A stretch of 62,845 nt of DNA from IMG/VR virus record IMGVR_UViG_3300032236_000207, positions 1-62,845 of that record; one strand, written 5' to 3'. A program made the position numbers and the translations under genes. Source of the stretch: a virus. Below the pieces are notes generated by a model. It was not told where the DNA came from. It saw nothing but the letters and a program-made list of their open reading frames with translations, and searched no databases. Shown here one piece after another: positions 15,791 to 55,982 of this stretch; position 1 is the stretch's first letter, and each line of letters starts with the position of its first letter.

Positions 15791-16245
15791 GACTGCTCCA
15801 AAATTTTTGTGAATAACTTGTCGGTCATCTTGTATCCAAGGTATTCAAATAAACGCGAATTGTCCATGTGAATCTTTGTGTGCATTATGATGCGATTCAC
15901 ACCTTCTTTTTTGAGCTCGTCTTCGGCAAACTGGAAAAGACGGATTCCTACACGACCCTTGCGGTATTCCTTCTTGAGAAAGTAAATATCCTCAAAAGCC
16001 GTTGTACATGTTTTGTAATGCAAATGAGGCTGCACGATAAATATCGCATAGCCAATAAGAGCATTATCCTCTCTAACCGTAACACAACGCAACATCTTGG
16101 CAACATGAAGCCGACCGTACGCTTCGTAGTCGGGCAGGAGGGGAAAGTCCTTGGTGACGCACAGTTCGTCGTAGTGCTCGGGTAGGATTTCCCTCAACGC
16201 CTCGATGAACTCGGCGGGGTCTTCAGATTGATACGTTGTCGTCAT
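15787..16245 (-). CDS. GNAT-family N-acetyltransferase
   Basis: 152 residues with the GNAT layout: a beta strand with NALIGYAIF, then YFLKKEYRKGRVGIRLFQFA containing the acetyl-CoA pyrophosphate-binding R-x-x-R-x-G/A signature (RKGRVG), and the final HMDNSRLFEYLGYKMTDKLF typical of motif B. GNAT genes are recurrent among the internal virion genes of environmental podoviruses; the substrate is unknown. It overlaps both neighbours by 4 nt, so it is translated with the late structural genes. Confidence 0.85.
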   Translation of the reverse strand: MTTTYQSEDPAEFIEALREILPEHYDELCVTKDFPLLPDYEAYGRLHVAKMLRCVTVREDNALIGYAIFIVQPHLHYKTCTTAFEDIYFLKKEYRKGRVGIRLFQFAEDELKKEGVNRIIMHTKIHMDNSRLFEYLGYKMTDKLFTKILEQS

Positions 16246-45528: not shown

Positions 45529-47055
45529 TTAAACGGTGTAGTACTTGTCACGGTGGTATCCCTTGAACCACTTAATATCTTCAGGCTCATCGCTTGGTAA
45601 GCGTAAGAACCCACCCTGTCTAAACCTCATCAGTGCTAATGTAGTCGCGTCAACCAAGTCATCATGAGCGCCTGAGGGAAACTCGGCGATCTCATCCACT
45701 AACTCTTCCGCCCAACGCGTCTCAGGCACCCACACTTTTCCAGACGCGATTATGTCCGATACTGCGTTAAGTCTGGCAATTTTGTCTTGGCCTTTACCCG
45801 GCGTGAACTCCTGCACGGGTATGCCCATAGACCTGAGCTCATATATTAGTGGCGCTCCGGTAGCTTTCTTCTCAATCAACACGCCATCAGGTTCGAACTG
45901 TTCGTATTCTGCCAACACGTCGCGTTTCAAGTCAGGCCACTCAACCCGTTTGCGGTATGTGTTTAACAAGATAATGTTTGGCATCCCGTGGTCTTCATGC
46001 AGGTAAAAAATCCCCCACGTTGTCCCAGCGGAATAGTCAGCCCGATTGTTTTTCTCAAACGCCGTATCCCACGTCTGCAAAATAAACTCGCATGGTGGTG
46101 GCGTCGGCTTGTCCCAAATCTGCCACCAGTCTCGCTTAACGATAGCACTCTCATTACCTACAGGGTTTTGCTGGTACTGCGCCTGCCACTTACTATTAGG
46201 CAGTTCTTCCTTGAGCGCGGCCAATTCTTCTAGTGACCAAAACTGAGGCCATAGGGGATTACCCGAAGGCAAGATGGCAGGAAACTCGATGACTTCCCAC
46301 TCTTCTCCGTTACGTGCAGCGGATGCTTTCAGCACCTGACCGGTCAAATCCCTCTGCGACCAGCGCGTCATAACTATAACAATAGCTCCCCCCGGCTGGA
46401 GACGCTGACGCGGACCGGACGTATACCACTCGTACACCTTGTCGTAAACATCTGGGTTGCTCGCTGCCATAGCAGCTTCTTGTTCTGAATGCGGGTCGTC
46501 TATTATTAGTACGTCAGCACCCTTACCTGTAACCGCACCGCCCACACCGATCGCAAAATAGTCACCGCCTTTGGATGTGTTCCACCGGCCAGCCGCTTTC
46601 GAGTCCACCTGCAGGTGCAAGTCGGGAAAGATATTGTTATAAATATCAGAGTCCACCAAGTTACGGACTTTACGACCGAAACCTACCGCAAGCTCAGCAG
46701 TATGTGATGCTTGAATAACCTTTTTGTGCGGAAACTTTCCCAGAAACCACGCTGGAAGTAGATATGAAGCGAACTCAGACTTAGTGTGACGAGGGGGCAT
46801 GTTGATAATAAGGCGCTTACATTTTCCACTTGCTACCCTCTCAAAAGCTTCAGCCATACGCTTGTGGTGTGCGCCTGAGATGAAGGTAGGCCACACTTTT
46901 TCCACAAATTTAATGAATCTTTGCTGCGAAAGTTCCCTATCTTTGAGCTTTTCGAGCTTTGTAAGCTGCGCTTCGAGCACCCGCAGGTCTGTATCGGACA
47001 GTTTGCCGCTATTTATTAGGGCTTCAACGTCTTTGAGCGAGATATTTGTGCTCAT
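45529..47055 (-). CDS. terL: terminase large subunit
   Basis: 508 residues. The ATPase domain has a deviant Walker A PPRHTKS (87-93), Walker B VLIIDDPH (183-190) and the coupling motif VMTRWSQRDL (229-238). The nuclease domain has QTWDTAF with D331, LIEKKATG with E396, and the terminal HDDLVDATTL with D466, D467 and D470, giving the RNase H-like active site. It packages DNA into the prohead through the portal. The start overlaps the small-subunit stop. Confidence 0.95.
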   Translation of the reverse strand: MSTNISLKDVEALINSGKLSDTDLRVLEAQLTKLEKLKDRELSQQRFIKFVEKVWPTFISGAHHKRMAEAFERVASGKCKRLIINMPPRHTKSEFASYLLPAWFLGKFPHKKVIQASHTAELAVGFGRKVRNLVDSDIYNNIFPDLHLQVDSKAAGRWNTSKGGDYFAIGVGGAVTGKGADVLIIDDPHSEQEAAMAASNPDVYDKVYEWYTSGPRQRLQPGGAIVIVMTRWSQRDLTGQVLKASAARNGEEWEVIEFPAILPSGNPLWPQFWSLEELAALKEELPNSKWQAQYQQNPVGNESAIVKRDWWQIWDKPTPPPCEFILQTWDTAFEKNNRADYSAGTTWGIFYLHEDHGMPNIILLNTYRKRVEWPDLKRDVLAEYEQFEPDGVLIEKKATGAPLIYELRSMGIPVQEFTPGKGQDKIARLNAVSDIIASGKVWVPETRWAEELVDEIAEFPSGAHDDLVDATTLALMRFRQGGFLRLPSDEPEDIKWFKGYHRDKYYTV

Positions 47056-47663
47056 TCTTGCTCTTTTGTAGACACGTCGTCGTCCACATGTTCATTTTCT
47101 GGCGTTTTCTGTACATATTCGTCCAGTTCGTCCAGCTCATCGACCAAATTTGGCTTGATATCTGTAACATCCGCGTTCATCAGGCGTTTTATGCGCTCCT
47201 TGATGCTGTTTTCTAGCGAACTAGACGTGGTGTGGTGGATTGTTATCTCGCTGCGCTCAGTAAAGAGGCCAATATCTGAATGTTTTCCAAGCAGCTCGAG
47301 CGCCTTGAGCTCAATTTTTGGGTCGCCGCTGTCTGCTAATGTTATAAGTTTGTTCGTTATGAAATTACGAGCTTGTAATTGGTCACTGAACGCCTGAAAG
47401 TCAAATTGTTTTATTAGTACAGACGCGGCTTTTGCCTGCGCTGATACAGATACTGTCTTAGGGGTGGAGGACTTTTCCGCTCCTGTTATTAACTTACCCG
47501 CTTGCTCGAGCGATTTGTCGTCGTAATCTAATGAACCATCGAGTTGCTCAATGAAATCTGCAGTGTTGACAGCAATAGCTACGCTATCCGCATGAGTCTT
47601 AGGTTGCTCATCGGACAGGTCAAACGGAATTGGATGCTCCGCAGTTGGCTCAATATTTAACAT
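47052..47663 (-). CDS. terminase small subunit-like protein
   Basis: 203 residues from the ATG at 47663, which has GGAAG 6-7 nt upstream; an ATG four codons earlier lacks this. The protein has a central helical region (ASVLIKQFDFQAFSDQLQAR, then ELKALELLGKHSDIGLF), typical of the oligomerisation core of small terminases, and an acidic C-terminal tail. It is assigned mainly by its position and coupling to terL. It recognises the packaging site, which may lie in the structured region just upstream. Confidence 0.75.
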   Translation of the reverse strand: MLNIEPTAEHPIPFDLSDEQPKTHADSVAIAVNTADFIEQLDGSLDYDDKSLEQAGKLITGAEKSSTPKTVSVSAQAKAASVLIKQFDFQAFSDQLQARNFITNKLITLADSGDPKIELKALELLGKHSDIGLFTERSEITIHHTTSSSLENSIKERIKRLMNADVTDIKPNLVDELDELDEYVQKTPENEHVDDDVSTKEQE

Positions 47664-47687
47664 GTGCACTTCCAAAAAAGAAGGGAT

Positions 47688-47785
47688 GTTGGTGACGGTC
47701 TATTTGCACTTATGGGTTTCCCCAGAGTAATCCGGTGTACCAACCCTGATCCCGACCTTGCGGTCTTGTAGAGATTTTCACCAAC
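47688..47785 (-). ncRNA. structured 5' leader or packaging-site candidate before the terminase operon
   Basis: Minus-strand folding by eye: closing stem GTTGGTGA (47785-47778) with TCACCAAC (47695-47688), 8 bp. Inside are hairpin GACC-GCAA-GGTC (47765-47754, a GNRA loop) and a second arm closed by GGGTT/AACCC (47746-47742 with 47718-47714), which holds CCGGA-UUAC-UCUGG (47735-47722) containing a G-U pair. The GNRA loop and G-U pair favour the minus-strand RNA. It ends 25 nt before the small terminase start, so it may control that operon, or the DNA may be the pac/cos region. Confidence 0.5.
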
Positions 47786-48077
47786 GGGCCCGACTATATC
47801 AGAAAAATATATAGGGGTGGGGGGGGTAGCAAAATAAAAAGTGACGGGGGGTGTTTCCTAGACTTGATACTTAAACTTGCCGATTGGATACTTAAAGGGG
47901 GTGGGGGGTTAACTCTGCGTTTTTTGGAAAAACGAAATCGAACGACATATTCCCGTAAATATACTACGGTGTTATATAAATCTTGGGACTCCTAATCGGG
48001 TGTGCAACACATAGTGTAGCGGGCCCCACCTCCCTTTGCTGGGTTTTCGGGGGCATGGGGGTCAATCGTGCTCGAAT
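47786..48077. other. divergent intergenic region with G-runs and paired repeats
   Basis: No gene is seen here. It separates the leftward late operon from the rightward early genes. It has plus-strand G-runs (GGGG-T-GGGGGGGG near 47814-47826, GGGGGG near 47846, GGGGG-T-GGGGGG near 47897-47908), a GC palindrome CGGGCCCG (47785-47792) and an A+T-rich stretch around 47950-47990. I could not find a convincing minus-strand late promoter here; it may need a phage factor. Confidence 0.5.
47866..47896. repeat. two GATACTTAAA direct repeats 21 bp apart
   Basis: GATACTTAAA occurs at 47866-47875 and 47887-47896, each preceded by TTG or TTG plus one base. The 21-bp period equals two helical turns, so both sites face the same side of DNA, as for a dimeric or cooperative regulator. 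Confidence 0.6.
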
Positions 48078-48126
48078 CTAACAAATGTTATGCCATCCCC
48101 CTACTTTATTTTTGTTCAAAGAACGC

Positions 48127-49076: not shown

Positions 49077-49120
49077 CTAACAAATGTTAGCGTACCACTA
49101 AGTTATTTTTGTTCAAAGAA
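49077..49120. repeat. second copy of a composite palindrome-plus-box element
   Basis: CTAACAAATGTTAG (49077-49090) followed after 12 nt by TTATTTTTGTTCAAAGAA (49103-49120). The same pair occurs at 48078-48090 and 48106-48123 immediately before the 48127 promoter. Here no good promoter follows, so it may be a decayed copy or a protein-binding site. Confidence 0.7.
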
Positions 49121-49133
49121 ATTTAGCCCGAAT

Positions 49134-49251
49134 TTTTAGAATGCCAGTTCTCTGGGCGGCGTTAGGGTTGAAGTTTGAGATTGTCATCGCAGGGCATAGT
49201 TTGGCGACAATCTTTTAGGATGCCAGTTCTCTGGGCGGGTTTAGGCTCGAA
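49134..49251 (+). repeat. 39-bp direct repeats flanking a hairpin; possible small RNA
   Basis: Copies at 49134-49172 and 49213-49251 are identical at 34 of 39 positions. Both contain TGCCAGTTCTCTGGGCGG with a small CCAG-TTCT-CTGG hairpin. Between them GATTGTC (49179-49185) and GACAATC (49206-49212) form a 7-bp stem. There is no open frame, so a non-coding RNA or a protein-binding array is more likely. Confidence 0.55.
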
Positions 49252-49614
49252 CTAACAAATGTTATGCTTTGGGCAGGTAATGTTACGCAATGTTACGTGA
49301 CCCCTCCCCGCAAACCCGCATGAAACCTAGATTGTTATATGTTATATTGTTACACGACATATATAGCAGTCCACCAAAATGGATTTGGTCATCAAGGTCA
49401 GCAAGTGCAATTCATACCACTCAAACTCATTTTGGTGGGATATATATATATTCTCATAACATTATAACTTTATAACAATTAGTCATTTTTTGGCGTGGTT
49501 AAGCCATTTCCTTTGTTACACTTTATTTCCAAAACCCGTAACAATACCCTATTTTCATAACATCCCACTAACAAAGAAACATAACAATCCTCACTCATGC
49601 TCCGTCCTAAAAAT
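49252..49614. other. A+T-rich non-coding stretch
   Basis: No convincing gene. It includes a long imperfect inverted repeat: ATATATA (49359-49365) and CCACCAAAATG (49371-49381) pair with CATTTTGGTGG (49428-49438) and TATATATATA (49441-49450), enclosing about 46 nt. Short GTTA/TAAC words are frequent. The role is unknown; an origin or a structured RNA is possible. Confidence 0.5.
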
Positions 49615-53467: not shown

Positions 53468-54532
53468 ATGTCAGAAGTTAATTTCGGTAAGACCATTACC
53501 TTGAAGCAAGCATCCAATTTGATTCGCACGAACCCCACAACTCGGTTCTTATTGCGAGGTGAACCCGGAATTGGAAAGTCTTCCCTGTTGGAGAGTATTG
53601 CTAACGCATTGGGTTATGACCACGCATACATTGACGTGCCTAACCTAGACCTTGGCGATATTGCGATGCCCGTGATTGACCACGAGACCAAGACAACTAG
53701 GTATTACCCTAATGCTCGGTTCAAATTGCATGAGAAGAAACCCATCGTCATCATGCTAGACGAGTATACGAAGGGCGCAGACCCAGTTAAGAACATGCTC
53801 CATCCCATGCTCGAGAAGGCGAACCCACGACTCGGTGACATCTCTTTGCATGAGCAGAACATTGTGTTCATGACGGGTAATCTATCGACAGACGGGGTGG
53901 GTGACTCACTCAAGGCGCACTCTATGAATCGTGTGGTATCTGTAACTATCCAAAAGCCTGATGCAGAACAGTGGATTGAATGGGCTATCGGCAAGAGTAT
54001 CGAGCCTGAGGTGATTGCTTGGGTGAATCGTTTCCCACAAGTCTTGGCAAGTTACACGGACGGTGGACAGGCGGATAACCCGTATATCTTTAATCCTAAG
54101 AAGCCTATGACTGCGTTCGTATCTCCACGCTCACTCGAGACGGCCTCTAACATTGTTAGGTCTCGCAAAGAGAATGATGCCGACTCAGTAATCGCGGCTT
54201 TGACTGGTGCTATTGGCGAGTCAGGTGCAAGAGATATGCAAGCGTATATCGAATTCTCAGACCAACTGCCAACATGGGAAGCGACCATCAAAGACCCTAA
54301 GAATACCAAGATACCTACAAGTGCAGGTGCTTGTGCGATTGTGGTGTTCGGTGCGATTGCCCGTGTGGAGAAGGACACCATTGATGCGTTCATGGAATAT
54401 CTCGAGCGATTCGATGCCGAGTGGCAAGCCGTGTTCGCTATCAACATAGCGAAGTCACAAGCCAAGCAGAGCATTGCGTTTAGTGCGAAAGCCTTTACTG
54501 CATGGGTTGCTAAGAACCAAGACTTACTCTAA
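53468..54532 (+). CDS. MoxR-type AAA+ ATPase
   Basis: 354 residues. Walker A GEPGIGKSS (31-39), Walker B IVIMLDEY (93-100) and sensor 1 FMTGN (134-138) are clear; MNRVV near 160 carries a likely arginine finger. The small helical domain follows, with PKKPMTAFVSPRSLE typical of MoxR proteins. MoxR ATPases work with VWA proteins to remodel or load metal into target complexes. The VWA partner is encoded two genes downstream. AGAGGAG lies upstream of the ATG. Confidence 0.85.
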   Translation: MSEVNFGKTITLKQASNLIRTNPTTRFLLRGEPGIGKSSLLESIANALGYDHAYIDVPNLDLGDIAMPVIDHETKTTRYYPNARFKLHEKKPIVIMLDEYTKGADPVKNMLHPMLEKANPRLGDISLHEQNIVFMTGNLSTDGVGDSLKAHSMNRVVSVTIQKPDAEQWIEWAIGKSIEPEVIAWVNRFPQVLASYTDGGQADNPYIFNPKKPMTAFVSPRSLETASNIVRSRKENDADSVIAALTGAIGESGARDMQAYIEFSDQLPTWEATIKDPKNTKIPTSAGACAIVVFGAIARVEKDTIDAFMEYLERFDAEWQAVFAINIAKSQAKQSIAFSAKAFTAWVAKNQDLL

Positions 54533-54542
54533 GAATTCTTAG

Positions 54543-54758
54543 ATGCTAACTACATCACAGAGTAATGGCACTCGTGCCCACCTTGGGCACAGGTATTGGG
54601 TGCAATGGGTAACCGCCACCAACCGAGACAAGGAGATGGTGGTGCTTGGCTACTGCGTTCGTGATATGGACAAGTTCGACAAGAACATTGTGTTCGAGCA
54701 CGAGAGCAAGATTGTGTGCGACAAGATTGCAGGTTTACTTAACGAAGGAGAGAGGTAA
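54543..54758 (+). CDS. hypothetical protein, 71 aa
   Basis: Lies between the AAA+ and VWA genes. The ATG follows the perfect palindrome CTAAGAATTCTTAG (54529-54542), with no clear Shine-Dalgarno. The product (GHRYWVQWVTATNRDKEMVV, then FDKNIVFEHESKIVCDKIAG) appears alpha/beta. A small adaptor of the AAA+/VWA pair is possible by position only. Confidence 0.6.
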   Translation: MLTTSQSNGTRAHLGHRYWVQWVTATNRDKEMVVLGYCVRDMDKFDKNIVFEHESKIVCDKIAGLLNEGER

Positions 54759-54761
54759 CAA

Positions 54762-55982
54762 ATGTTAGAAGAAAGACGTGTTCAGAAGTCGAAGATTAGT
54801 TTGATGCGTAACCCTAAGTTCGCATTGCTATCAGGTATCTTGATGGTTGGTCGTACTAAGGTAGTGGATAACTTACCTACTGCGTGCACCAATGGTAGAG
54901 ATGAATCGTATGGTCGCAAGTTCGTCAAAGAACTGCGTGACCAAGAGTTGAACTTTGTGGTGGCGCATGAGAACTATCACAAGATGTATCGACACTTGAC
55001 TACATGGCGCAAGTTGCACGAGATTGACCACAGGTTAGCGAACAGCGCATGTGACTATGTAATCAACATCCAGTTGAAAGACCTAGACCCTAACGAGACA
55101 CTCATAGCCATGCCCCGATACAAAGACGGCAAGGTGATGGGCTTAGTTGATGAGCGATTCCGTGGCATGAACGCCAAGGAGGTGTTCGACATACTAAGAG
55201 AGGAGAAAGAGGAAAGAGGTTCTGGCGGTGAGGGCGAGGGTGGTAGCGGTGCGGGTGATGGTGACCCTGAGTTCGATGACCACGACTGGGATGGTGCTCA
55301 GGAGATGACAGCCGAGGAGAAGAAAGACTTGGCACGAGAGATTGACCAAGCGATTCGTCAGGGCATCATGGCACAGCAGAAGATTGCGGGTAGCGGAGCA
55401 GGTGGACTAGACCGTGAGTTGCAAGGACTACTTGAGCCCAAGGTTAACTGGCGTGAGGTATTGCGTGAGTTCGTTAAGTCAACATGCAGTTCTAAAGATG
55501 CATCGTCATGGCGCAGAGTTAATCGTAGGTTCTTATCCACAGGTGTTTACATGCCGAGCCTTATCGGTGAGAAGGTAGGTCACTTGGTTATTGCTATCGA
55601 CACATCGGGTTCGATTGGCGGTGATGAGTTGGCAGACTTCTTATCTGAGGTTAAGGGTATCGCAGAAGAGGTAAACCCTGAGTGCGTGGACTTACTGTAT
55701 TGGGATAGCGAGGTAGCGGGGCACGAGACTTACTCGGGTTCTACTGCGTCAGATATTCCTAACTCTACCAAGCCCAAGGGTGGCGGTGGCACAAGCCCGT
55801 CTTGTGTATCAGCGTATCTGAAAGAGAAGAACATCCAGCCCGAGTGCGTGATTGTTCTAACCGACGGGTATGTTGGTGGTGATTGGGGTAGCGAGTGGAC
55901 TGCGCCCGTGATGTGGTGCATCGTGGGTGGGTATGACGGCGATGCCGACAACGGCAAGACTATTCACATCGACAGCAACTAA
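54762..55982 (+). CDS. VWA-domain protein with HExxH metallopeptidase-like N terminus
   Basis: 406 residues. The N-terminal part matches DUF2201-type proteins: TNGRDESYG and VVAHENYHKMYRH, with HENYH at 69-73 as a zinc-binding motif. A low-complexity Gly/Glu/Asp linker spans about 152-180. The C-terminal VWA-like domain has IAIDTSGS (MIDAS DxSxS, 280-284), GGTSPS and VLTDGYVGG. With the MoxR gene it forms the usual ATPase/VWA pair. The start ATG is in a palindrome copy, with GGAGAGAGG upstream. Confidence 0.85.
   Translation: MLEERRVQKSKISLMRNPKFALLSGILMVGRTKVVDNLPTACTNGRDESYGRKFVKELRDQELNFVVAHENYHKMYRHLTTWRKLHEIDHRLANSACDYVINIQLKDLDPNETLIAMPRYKDGKVMGLVDERFRGMNAKEVFDILREEKEERGSGGEGEGGSGAGDGDPEFDDHDWDGAQEMTAEEKKDLAREIDQAIRQGIMAQQKIAGSGAGGLDRELQGLLEPKVNWREVLREFVKSTCSSKDASSWRRVNRRFLSTGVYMPSLIGEKVGHLVIAIDTSGSIGGDELADFLSEVKGIAEEVNPECVDLLYWDSEVAGHETYSGSTASDIPNSTKPKGGGGTSPSCVSAYLKEKNIQPECVIVLTDGYVGGDWGSEWTAPVMWCIVGGYDGDADNGKTIHIDSN

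What the first reader, a model, noticed from the sequence alone, without database searches (positions are those of the whole stretch)
47688..47785. Highly structured minus-strand leader upstream of the terminase genes
An 8-bp closing stem encloses a GNRA hairpin (GACC-GCAA-GGTC) and a two-storey arm (GGGTT/AACCC around CCGGA-TTAC-TCTGG). The G-U pair and GNRA loop only make sense on the minus strand, the strand of the late operon. It ends 25 nt from the small-terminase start. I know no riboswitch with this layout. It may be a cis-regulatory RNA for late genes or the DNA packaging site.
Basis: partly seen in the sequence, partly recalled or inferred. Interest (0 to 1): 0.65.

Follow-up and report, generated by a model that had tools for sequence, protein, structure and literature searches.

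The report
Swappable RNA module at late promoter
At the very start of this freshwater phage's late transcript, just before the DNA-packaging genes, sits a folded RNA of an uncatalogued family; related phages carry a different folded RNA, a tRNA gene or nothing in the same slot, so it looks like interchangeable RNA cargo whose job is still unknown.

Summary
The structure is real, on the minus strand, at 47688-47785. It begins at the predicted start (+1) of the late transcript. Five homologues of its core, one on an unrelated outer stem, show compensatory changes and a GCAA-to-UUCG tetraloop swap.

It is an insertion: 87 of 101 distinct related terminase leaders lack it. The other 14, including this one, carry an element in the same slot, mostly unrelated RNAs with the same GUUGG...CCAAC ends; one holds a complete tRNA-Asn. 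The same kind of module occurs singly or in arrays in many other phages (399 modules, 209 clusters, 147 singletons), often beside terminase or tRNA genes. A sister class lies unannotated in the late leader of phage HK620 and in 107 of 5,426 complete E. coli genomes. The elements scanned match nothing in Rfam except ordinary tRNAs and one unrelated RNA.

Best reading: an accessory, exchangeable noncoding-RNA gene driven by the late promoter. Its target is unknown. A cis 5'-end stabiliser or put-like antiterminator is not excluded; a riboswitch, a packaging site or an integron cassette is disfavoured.

The parts
47793..47801 (-). Extended -10 element TGATATAGT of the late promoter; predicted +1 at 47785/47786
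   Evidence: TGnTAnAnT lies at the same place in the related TerS leaders. In non-coding cases the GTTGG start follows the hexamer by 6, 7 or 8 nt (16, 8 and 1 cases). No transcript mapping.
47688..47785 (-). Class C RNA module (98 nt), flush with predicted +1
   Evidence: Covariance model R1: window 112.7 bits; homologues L211, L212, L431, L425. Covariation exceeds all 500 shuffles.
47778..47785 (-). Outer stem P1, 5' strand GTTGGTGA
   Evidence: Pairs with 47688-47695. In L425 the same core sits on an unrelated long stem; four P1 pairs change on both sides.
47688..47695 (-). Outer stem P1, 3' strand TCACCAAC
   Evidence: As above.
47744..47773 (-). Arm 1: CUCU/AGGG enclosing GACC-GCAA-GGUC
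   Evidence: The tetraloop is GCAA, GCAG or UUCG (with C-G to U-G) in homologues. CUCU/AGGG is invariant; the alternative UCUA/UAGA (47769-47772 with 47699-47702) cannot be excluded.
47732..47743 (-). Arm 2: UUGG-UACA-CCGG hairpin
   Evidence: One-sided changes only (CUGG/CCGG, CUGG/CCAG) and one mismatch in L212: moderate support.
47707..47729 (-). Arm 3: UACU-c-UGGG-GAAA-CCCA-ua-AGUG
   Evidence: UGGG/CCCA, UCCA/UGGA and UAGU/ACUA around an invariant GAAA loop: two-sided compensation at three of four pairs.
47669..47683 (-). Small hairpin (CTTC..GAAG) over the TerS ribosome-binding site
   Evidence: A stem of at least 3 bp in 73 of 96 related leaders; partner-shuffled control mean 29, maximum 43 of 1000. 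Present with or without an insert.
47052..47663 (-). Small terminase subunit (TerS), first late gene
   Evidence: 203 aa, immediately before TerL; relatives in 130 IMG/VR stretches; no Pfam or PHROG match.
45529..47055 (-). Large terminase subunit (TerL)
   Evidence: PHROG 38, E = 1.6e-106; 48-58% identical to phages DSL-LC04, HTVC027P and HTVC023P.

Best explanation
The 98-nt element is an accessory, exchangeable noncoding-RNA gene loaded into a slot at the start of the late transcript. Shown by sequence: it is a compact cloverleaf RNA core; it is an insertion relative to most relatives; the same slot in related phages holds unrelated RNA cores, a tRNA gene, small arrays of such modules, or nothing; the same cores occur on different outer stems and before different genes. 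Inferred: RNA polymerase starts at the first G of the outer stem, so the late promoter makes the RNA with a ready-formed 5' end; the RNA is cut from the mRNA or stays as a folded 5' head, and works as a structured RNA ligand of some host or phage factor, for example a decoy or inhibitor in host takeover or counter-defence. Its target is unknown. I put the identity (exchangeable structured RNA module) at about 0.9 and action in trans as a separate RNA at about 0.5.
For: Core covariation and tetraloop swap, 0 of 500 shuffles. The core is grafted: L425 has it on an unrelated long outer stem, L431 on a changed one. Insert present or absent at one site: 14 of 101 distinct TerS leaders carry it, and the closest relatives (TerS 94% and 87% identical) lack it. 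The same slot holds classes A, B, C, E, F-like and tRNA-like, and in L045 a complete tRNA-Asn plus further modules. Arrays of the same modules in many phages: 212 units, 399 modules, 209 clusters, some ending in terminator-like hairpins or beside tRNA genes. Class A: kissing-loop pair A-U in 40 and G-C in 8 with no exception, and 122 distinct cores on many outer stems. Terminase neighbourhood: TerS is the downstream gene in 24 of 82 array loci; in a control of 82 more distant genes it is not among the families matched by two or more. Class D RNA in the late leader of HK620, HK633 and an E. coli HS prophage.
Against: No transcript, processing or binding data exist; promoter and +1 are predictions. 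Class C has only five known members, so its covariation rests on few independent changes. Invariant single-stranded residues could equally serve a cis function on the nascent RNA. No target or partner gene was found: Ro60/TROVE absent in 31 of 31 records and tyrosine integrase absent in 33 of 33.
Confidence: 0.5

Rival explanations
1. Cis-acting 5'-end stabiliser: a stem flush with +1 leaves no unpaired 5' nucleotides, which would block RppH-type pyrophosphohydrolysis and 5'-sensing RNases, so the late mRNA lives longer. Any compact fold would do, hence the interchangeable interiors.
For: Non-coding elements begin 6-8 nt after the -10 hexamer, i.e. at +1. B. subtilis RppH is reported to need at least two unpaired 5' nucleotides (PMC4227774). 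Insert-less leaders also have a short hairpin near the 5' end.
Against: Interiors are strongly conserved within a class and show loop-loop covariation, which a mere stabiliser would not need. Many modules lie in mid-transcript arrays or beside tRNAs. Most relatives do without one.
Confidence: 0.22
2. Cis-acting control of the late operon from its 5' leader: a put-like RNA that binds RNA polymerase and makes it resist terminators, or a leader that responds to a ligand or protein.
For: HK022 putL is a ~70-nt RNA whose base-paired part starts at nucleotide 3 of the transcript (PMC9378689), similar in place and size. Modules precede long operons.
Against: More than 200 unrelated module clusters do not fit one RNA polymerase contact; the modules are not tied to one downstream gene; class C is a cloverleaf, not two stem-loops; no Rfam match.
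Confidence: 0.15
3. DNA packaging or maturation site (cos/pac) beside the small terminase gene.
For: Position directly upstream of TerS, and the recurrence of arrays next to terminase and HNH genes.
Against: Absent from 87 of 101 related leaders; conservation is of base pairing and tetraloops, with core and outer stem exchanged independently; the same modules occur in late leaders and other places away from terminase genes.
Confidence: 0.04

Closest known systems
GOLLD and ROOL RNAs
   Same: Structured phage or prophage RNAs of unknown function, often near tRNA islands; tRNAs sometimes lie within the GOLLD linker (PMC12286853).
   Different: Those are large single families (many GOLLD exceed 800 nt) that build RNA cages. 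Here ~55-140 nt modules of many unrelated folds share short outer stems; no Rfam hit to either family.
Prophage late-region sRNAs (Pas sRNAs, STnc100)
   Same: Accessory RNAs of lambdoid prophages; PasD genes lie near antiterminator Q and next to holin/lysozyme genes (PMC13192938), like the class D element in HK620.
   Different: Those are base-pairing sRNAs. The modules here are compact folds with long-range loop pairing and no Rfam match.
Phage tRNA genes and tRNA arrays
   Same: Same slots; arrays lie beside tRNA genes, L045 carries a complete tRNA-Asn in the +1 slot, and some modules keep tRNA arms.
   Different: The window element is not a tRNA: no ARAGORN or Rfam tRNA call, no T-loop.
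HK022 put RNA
   Same: Short structured RNA at the very start of a phage operon transcript (PMC9378689).
   Different: put has two stem-loops, one conserved design and acts on RNA polymerase; here a cloverleaf from one of very many unrelated classes.
Integron attC cassettes
   Same: Array hairpins have two paired blocks around a small internal loop with a variable tip and a GTTGG core; modules are swapped.
   Different: No tyrosine integrase in 33 of 33 records; pairing is kept at RNA level and the outer stem varies.

Membership tests
Known Rfam family (riboswitch, ribozyme, sRNA, pRNA) | Match to the family covariance model | tested here: not met
   No match at gathering score for the whole window, none up to E = 5 for 47600-47900; array and other-class loci gave only tRNA and one int-alpA.
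tRNA | ARAGORN or Rfam RF00005 call | tested here: not met
   Zero tRNA in the window.
tRNA | Cloverleaf with T-loop and 3' CCA | tested here: not met
   Cloverleaf-like, but the three loops are GCAA, UACA and GAAA; no T-loop and no CCA end.
GOLLD / ROOL | Match to the Rfam models and large size | tested here: not met
   98 nt; no Rfam hit.
Bacterial Y RNA / Ro60 system | Ro60/TROVE protein encoded with the RNA | tested here: not met
   PF05731 in 0 of 31 records; a DUF2828/DUF7788 protein only beside the L425 copy.
Integron gene cassette (attC) | Integron-type tyrosine integrase in the same genome | tested here: not met
   PF00589 in 0 of 33 records, found in 14 of 14 control genomes.
HK022 put-type antiterminator | Placed at the start of the transcript | tested here: met
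   Begins 7 nt after the -10 hexamer; prediction only.
HK022 put-type antiterminator | Two stem-loops contacting the RNA polymerase beta' zinc-binding domain | tested here: not met
   Consensus is a cloverleaf of three arms; the polymerase contact could not be tested.
Accessory phage noncoding RNA | Gained or lost independently of the core genome | tested here: met
   14 of 101 distinct leaders carry an insert; near relatives lack it.
Accessory phage noncoding RNA | Discrete RNA accumulates and acts in trans | not testable with these tools
   No transcriptome of this phage or of any module carrier was available.
cos/pac packaging site | DNA ends or terminase cleavage at the site | not testable with these tools
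   No virion DNA ends available.

The most novel reading that the evidence does not exclude
Phages carry an unrecognised modular RNA system: dozens to hundreds of unrelated compact RNA folds, kept as interchangeable cores on a few standard outer stems, strung in arrays or placed singly at the +1 of late or terminase operons, moved between phages like anti-defence or tRNA cargo, and expressed as a diverse set of trans-acting RNAs.
Probability: 0.4. Interest if true: 0.9.

Novelty: new variant of a known kind. Interest (0 to 1): 0.78.

Why it matters
If right, a whole class of phage RNA genes has gone unannotated: gene callers and Rfam miss them, yet they fill the space before the packaging genes in many environmental phages and the late leader of a classical phage such as HK620. 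Because members sit in E. coli prophages, including strain HS, function can be tested in ordinary laboratory systems. The diversity is far from saturated (147 singletons among 209 clusters), as expected if phages and hosts drive each other's change, so these RNAs may be a source of new inhibitors, decoys or RNA parts.

Tried and rejected
Rfam at gathering and relaxed thresholds: nothing. Plain minimum-energy folding: too weak to decide, and its arm differs from the comparative consensus. Integron cassettes: suggested by the arrays, not supported because integrases are absent. Ro60/Y RNA: suggested by the DUF2828/DUF7788 gene next to the L425 copy, not supported in other records. Mobile element with terminal inverted repeats: no target duplication seen by eye, and outer stems change while cores stay. 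Cultured phages: no hit for the class C or class A element, one short chance-level hit for class B; the marine and lake relatives by TerL gave no further insight. More class C members: only four beyond the window after a dedicated scan and model searches of 198 loci. Chance matches of the search pattern inside coding regions and a true tRNA-Leu (L179, L190, L193) were set aside. Bacterial genomes: the array arm CAGTCCCCAGCCGTGTTGG gave one hit, against at least 120 in viral contigs.

Full report
Observation. Folding alone gives z = -1.94, weak evidence. The homologous start of the small terminase gene is the ATG at 47663, 24 nt away.

It is an insertion. I collected IMG/VR relatives of TerL and TerS and compared the DNA before TerS. 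Most leaders run directly from an extended -10 box through about 7 nt to a 20-30-nt leader and the ATG. Fourteen of 101 distinct leaders, the window's among them, contain a GTTGG...CCAAC element instead; the closest relatives, with TerS 94% and 87% identical, do not. By eye, the inserted DNA starts 6-8 nt after the -10 hexamer, at the expected +1; over all non-coding cases in the held loci the spacing was 6 nt (16), 7 nt (8) or 8 nt (1), with a few chance hits at 9-10. The window's gap is 7 nt.

The inserts are not one family. Window: class C. L113, L148, L168, L197: class A. L087 and L093: class B. L137 and L187: tRNA-like with a good T-arm. L174, L178, L204: class E. L068: resembles class F. 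L156: a short hairpin. L072: a different stem, GUCGG/CUGAC. L084 and L045 carry several modules, and the L045 slot contains a complete tRNA-Asn between the promoter and the next module. A slot that accepts a tRNA gene and unrelated RNA folds behaves like a cargo slot for RNA genes. Class letters are my own working names.

Class C as an RNA. Pattern scans found the core in L211, L212, L425 and L431. L425 carries it on an unrelated long outer stem next to a tRNA-Leu gene and a DUF2828/DUF7788 protein gene; L212 has it in an array just before a gene for a Cro-like protein. The alignment gives 97.5% paired cells, 7 pairs with changes on both sides and 0 of 500 shuffles as good. Arm 3 is UGGG/CCCA, UCCA/UGGA or UAGU/ACUA around a fixed GAAA loop; the arm 1 tetraloop is GCAA, GCAG or UUCG. 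Swapping a GNRA for a UNCG loop is hard to explain except as RNA. Whether 47769-47773 pairs within arm 1 or with 47699-47702 is unresolved, since both are invariant.

The wider family. A search for the outer stem behind a -10 box, then for a motif seen between modules, uncovered arrays. Two kinds of frame alternate: GTTGGTG-Y-CACCAAC, and ACG-CA-TGGGGATTG-X-CAGTCCCCA-GC-CGTGTTGG, whose stem also varies by compensation (GAAGATTG/CAGTCTTC in L045). In the loci held at that point there were 212 units; the modules X and Y, with 20 single elements added by hand, form 399 modules in 209 clusters, 147 of them singletons. Class A was examined in depth: over 48 members one stem pair occurs as A-U, C-G, U-A and G-C without exception, and a loop-loop pair as A-U (40) or G-C (8) without exception. 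In 122 distinct class A cores the outer stem is GTTGG-type in 56, another perfect stem in 59, the second frame in 3, and none of 5 bp or more in 4. So the core is the conserved unit and the outer stem a standard mount.

Where the modules sit. Among 82 genes downstream of arrays, 24 match one TerS family and 11 a TerL family; among 82 genes more than 1.5 kb away in the same loci, TerS is not among the families with two or more members. Upstream genes include TerL and HNH nucleases. Some arrays adjoin tRNA genes or end in terminator-like hairpins. Related modules also precede ParB-like, replication and regulator genes. The array arm was found in at least 120 viral contigs but once in the bacterial genome collection.

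Link to classical phages. Class D (GCGC-AGGCUGAU-GCGC ... CCGG-AGAUCAGCA-CCGG, with GCUGAU/AUCAGC loop complementarity) matches 200 cultured phage records, 29 of them over at least 80% of the query. In HK620 and HK633 it lies unannotated in the late leader between pR' and the holin gene, in HK620 before the terminator tQ; in ST4, swi2 and KlebP_265 it lies within about half a kilobase of tRNA genes. It is present in 107 of 5,426 complete E. coli genomes, in strain HS between an antitermination gene and a holin gene. Rfam does not recognise it.

Mechanism. Being flush with +1 suits either a 5'-end function or direct production of an RNA with a ready 5' end; it is not expected of a generic riboswitch or a packaging site. 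The tRNA in the same slot, the arrays beside tRNA genes, the strict conservation of cores, the lack of a fixed downstream gene and the patchy presence favour accessory trans-acting RNA genes. This is inference: no transcript, partner or phenotype is known. Rivals are a 5' stabiliser (precedent: B. subtilis RppH needs unpaired 5' nucleotides, PMC4227774) and a put-like antiterminator (PMC9378689).

Novelty. The module is an unlisted RNA family, and the array architecture has no precedent that I found in Rfam or in the open-access library; subscription papers could not be searched. Accessory phage RNAs are a known kind, hence 'new variant of a known kind'; the novel case is that this is a distinct modular system.

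Limits. The pattern scans favour GTTGG-type stems; the TerS leader set and the class A and class C core scans do not depend on that stem.

Noticed in passing
47669-47683 (-): A small hairpin over the TerS ribosome-binding site with covarying stems across relatives (73 of 96 leaders against a shuffled mean of 29): a possible translational control of TerS, independent of the insert.
   Followed up: partly
about 47800-47960 (-): C-rich block upstream of the late promoter (AACACCCCCCGTCACTTTTTATTTTGC...CCCCCCACCCC); similar blocks recur in most related TerS leaders. Possible regulator site or origin element.
   Followed up: no
48078-48123, 49077-49120, 49245-49267: Short direct repeats in the non-coding DNA between the late and early regions (83% and 96% identical pieces).
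   Followed up: no
L535 2501-2586 (HK620 16098-16183), L536 2501-2586 (HK633), L541 2001-2106 (E. coli HS): Class D structured RNA, unannotated, in lambdoid late leaders; 107 of 5,426 complete E. coli genomes carry the HK620 version.
   Followed up: partly
L425 1194-2645 and 2678-2775: A DUF2828/DUF7788 protein gene (possibly Ro60-like, from memory) lies directly before a class C RNA and a tRNA cluster.
   Followed up: partly
L045 1083-1158: A complete tRNA-Asn gene lies between the late promoter and the terminase leader module, in the same +1 slot.
   Followed up: yes
L228, L260, L274, L388, L392 array ends: Arrays end in terminator-like hairpins with T-runs (GGGGGG...CCCCCCTCTTTTTT), suggesting separate noncoding transcripts.
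   Followed up: no
window 53468-55982 (+): Early-side pair of a MoxR-like AAA ATPase and a DUF2201 metallopeptidase/VWA protein.
   Followed up: no
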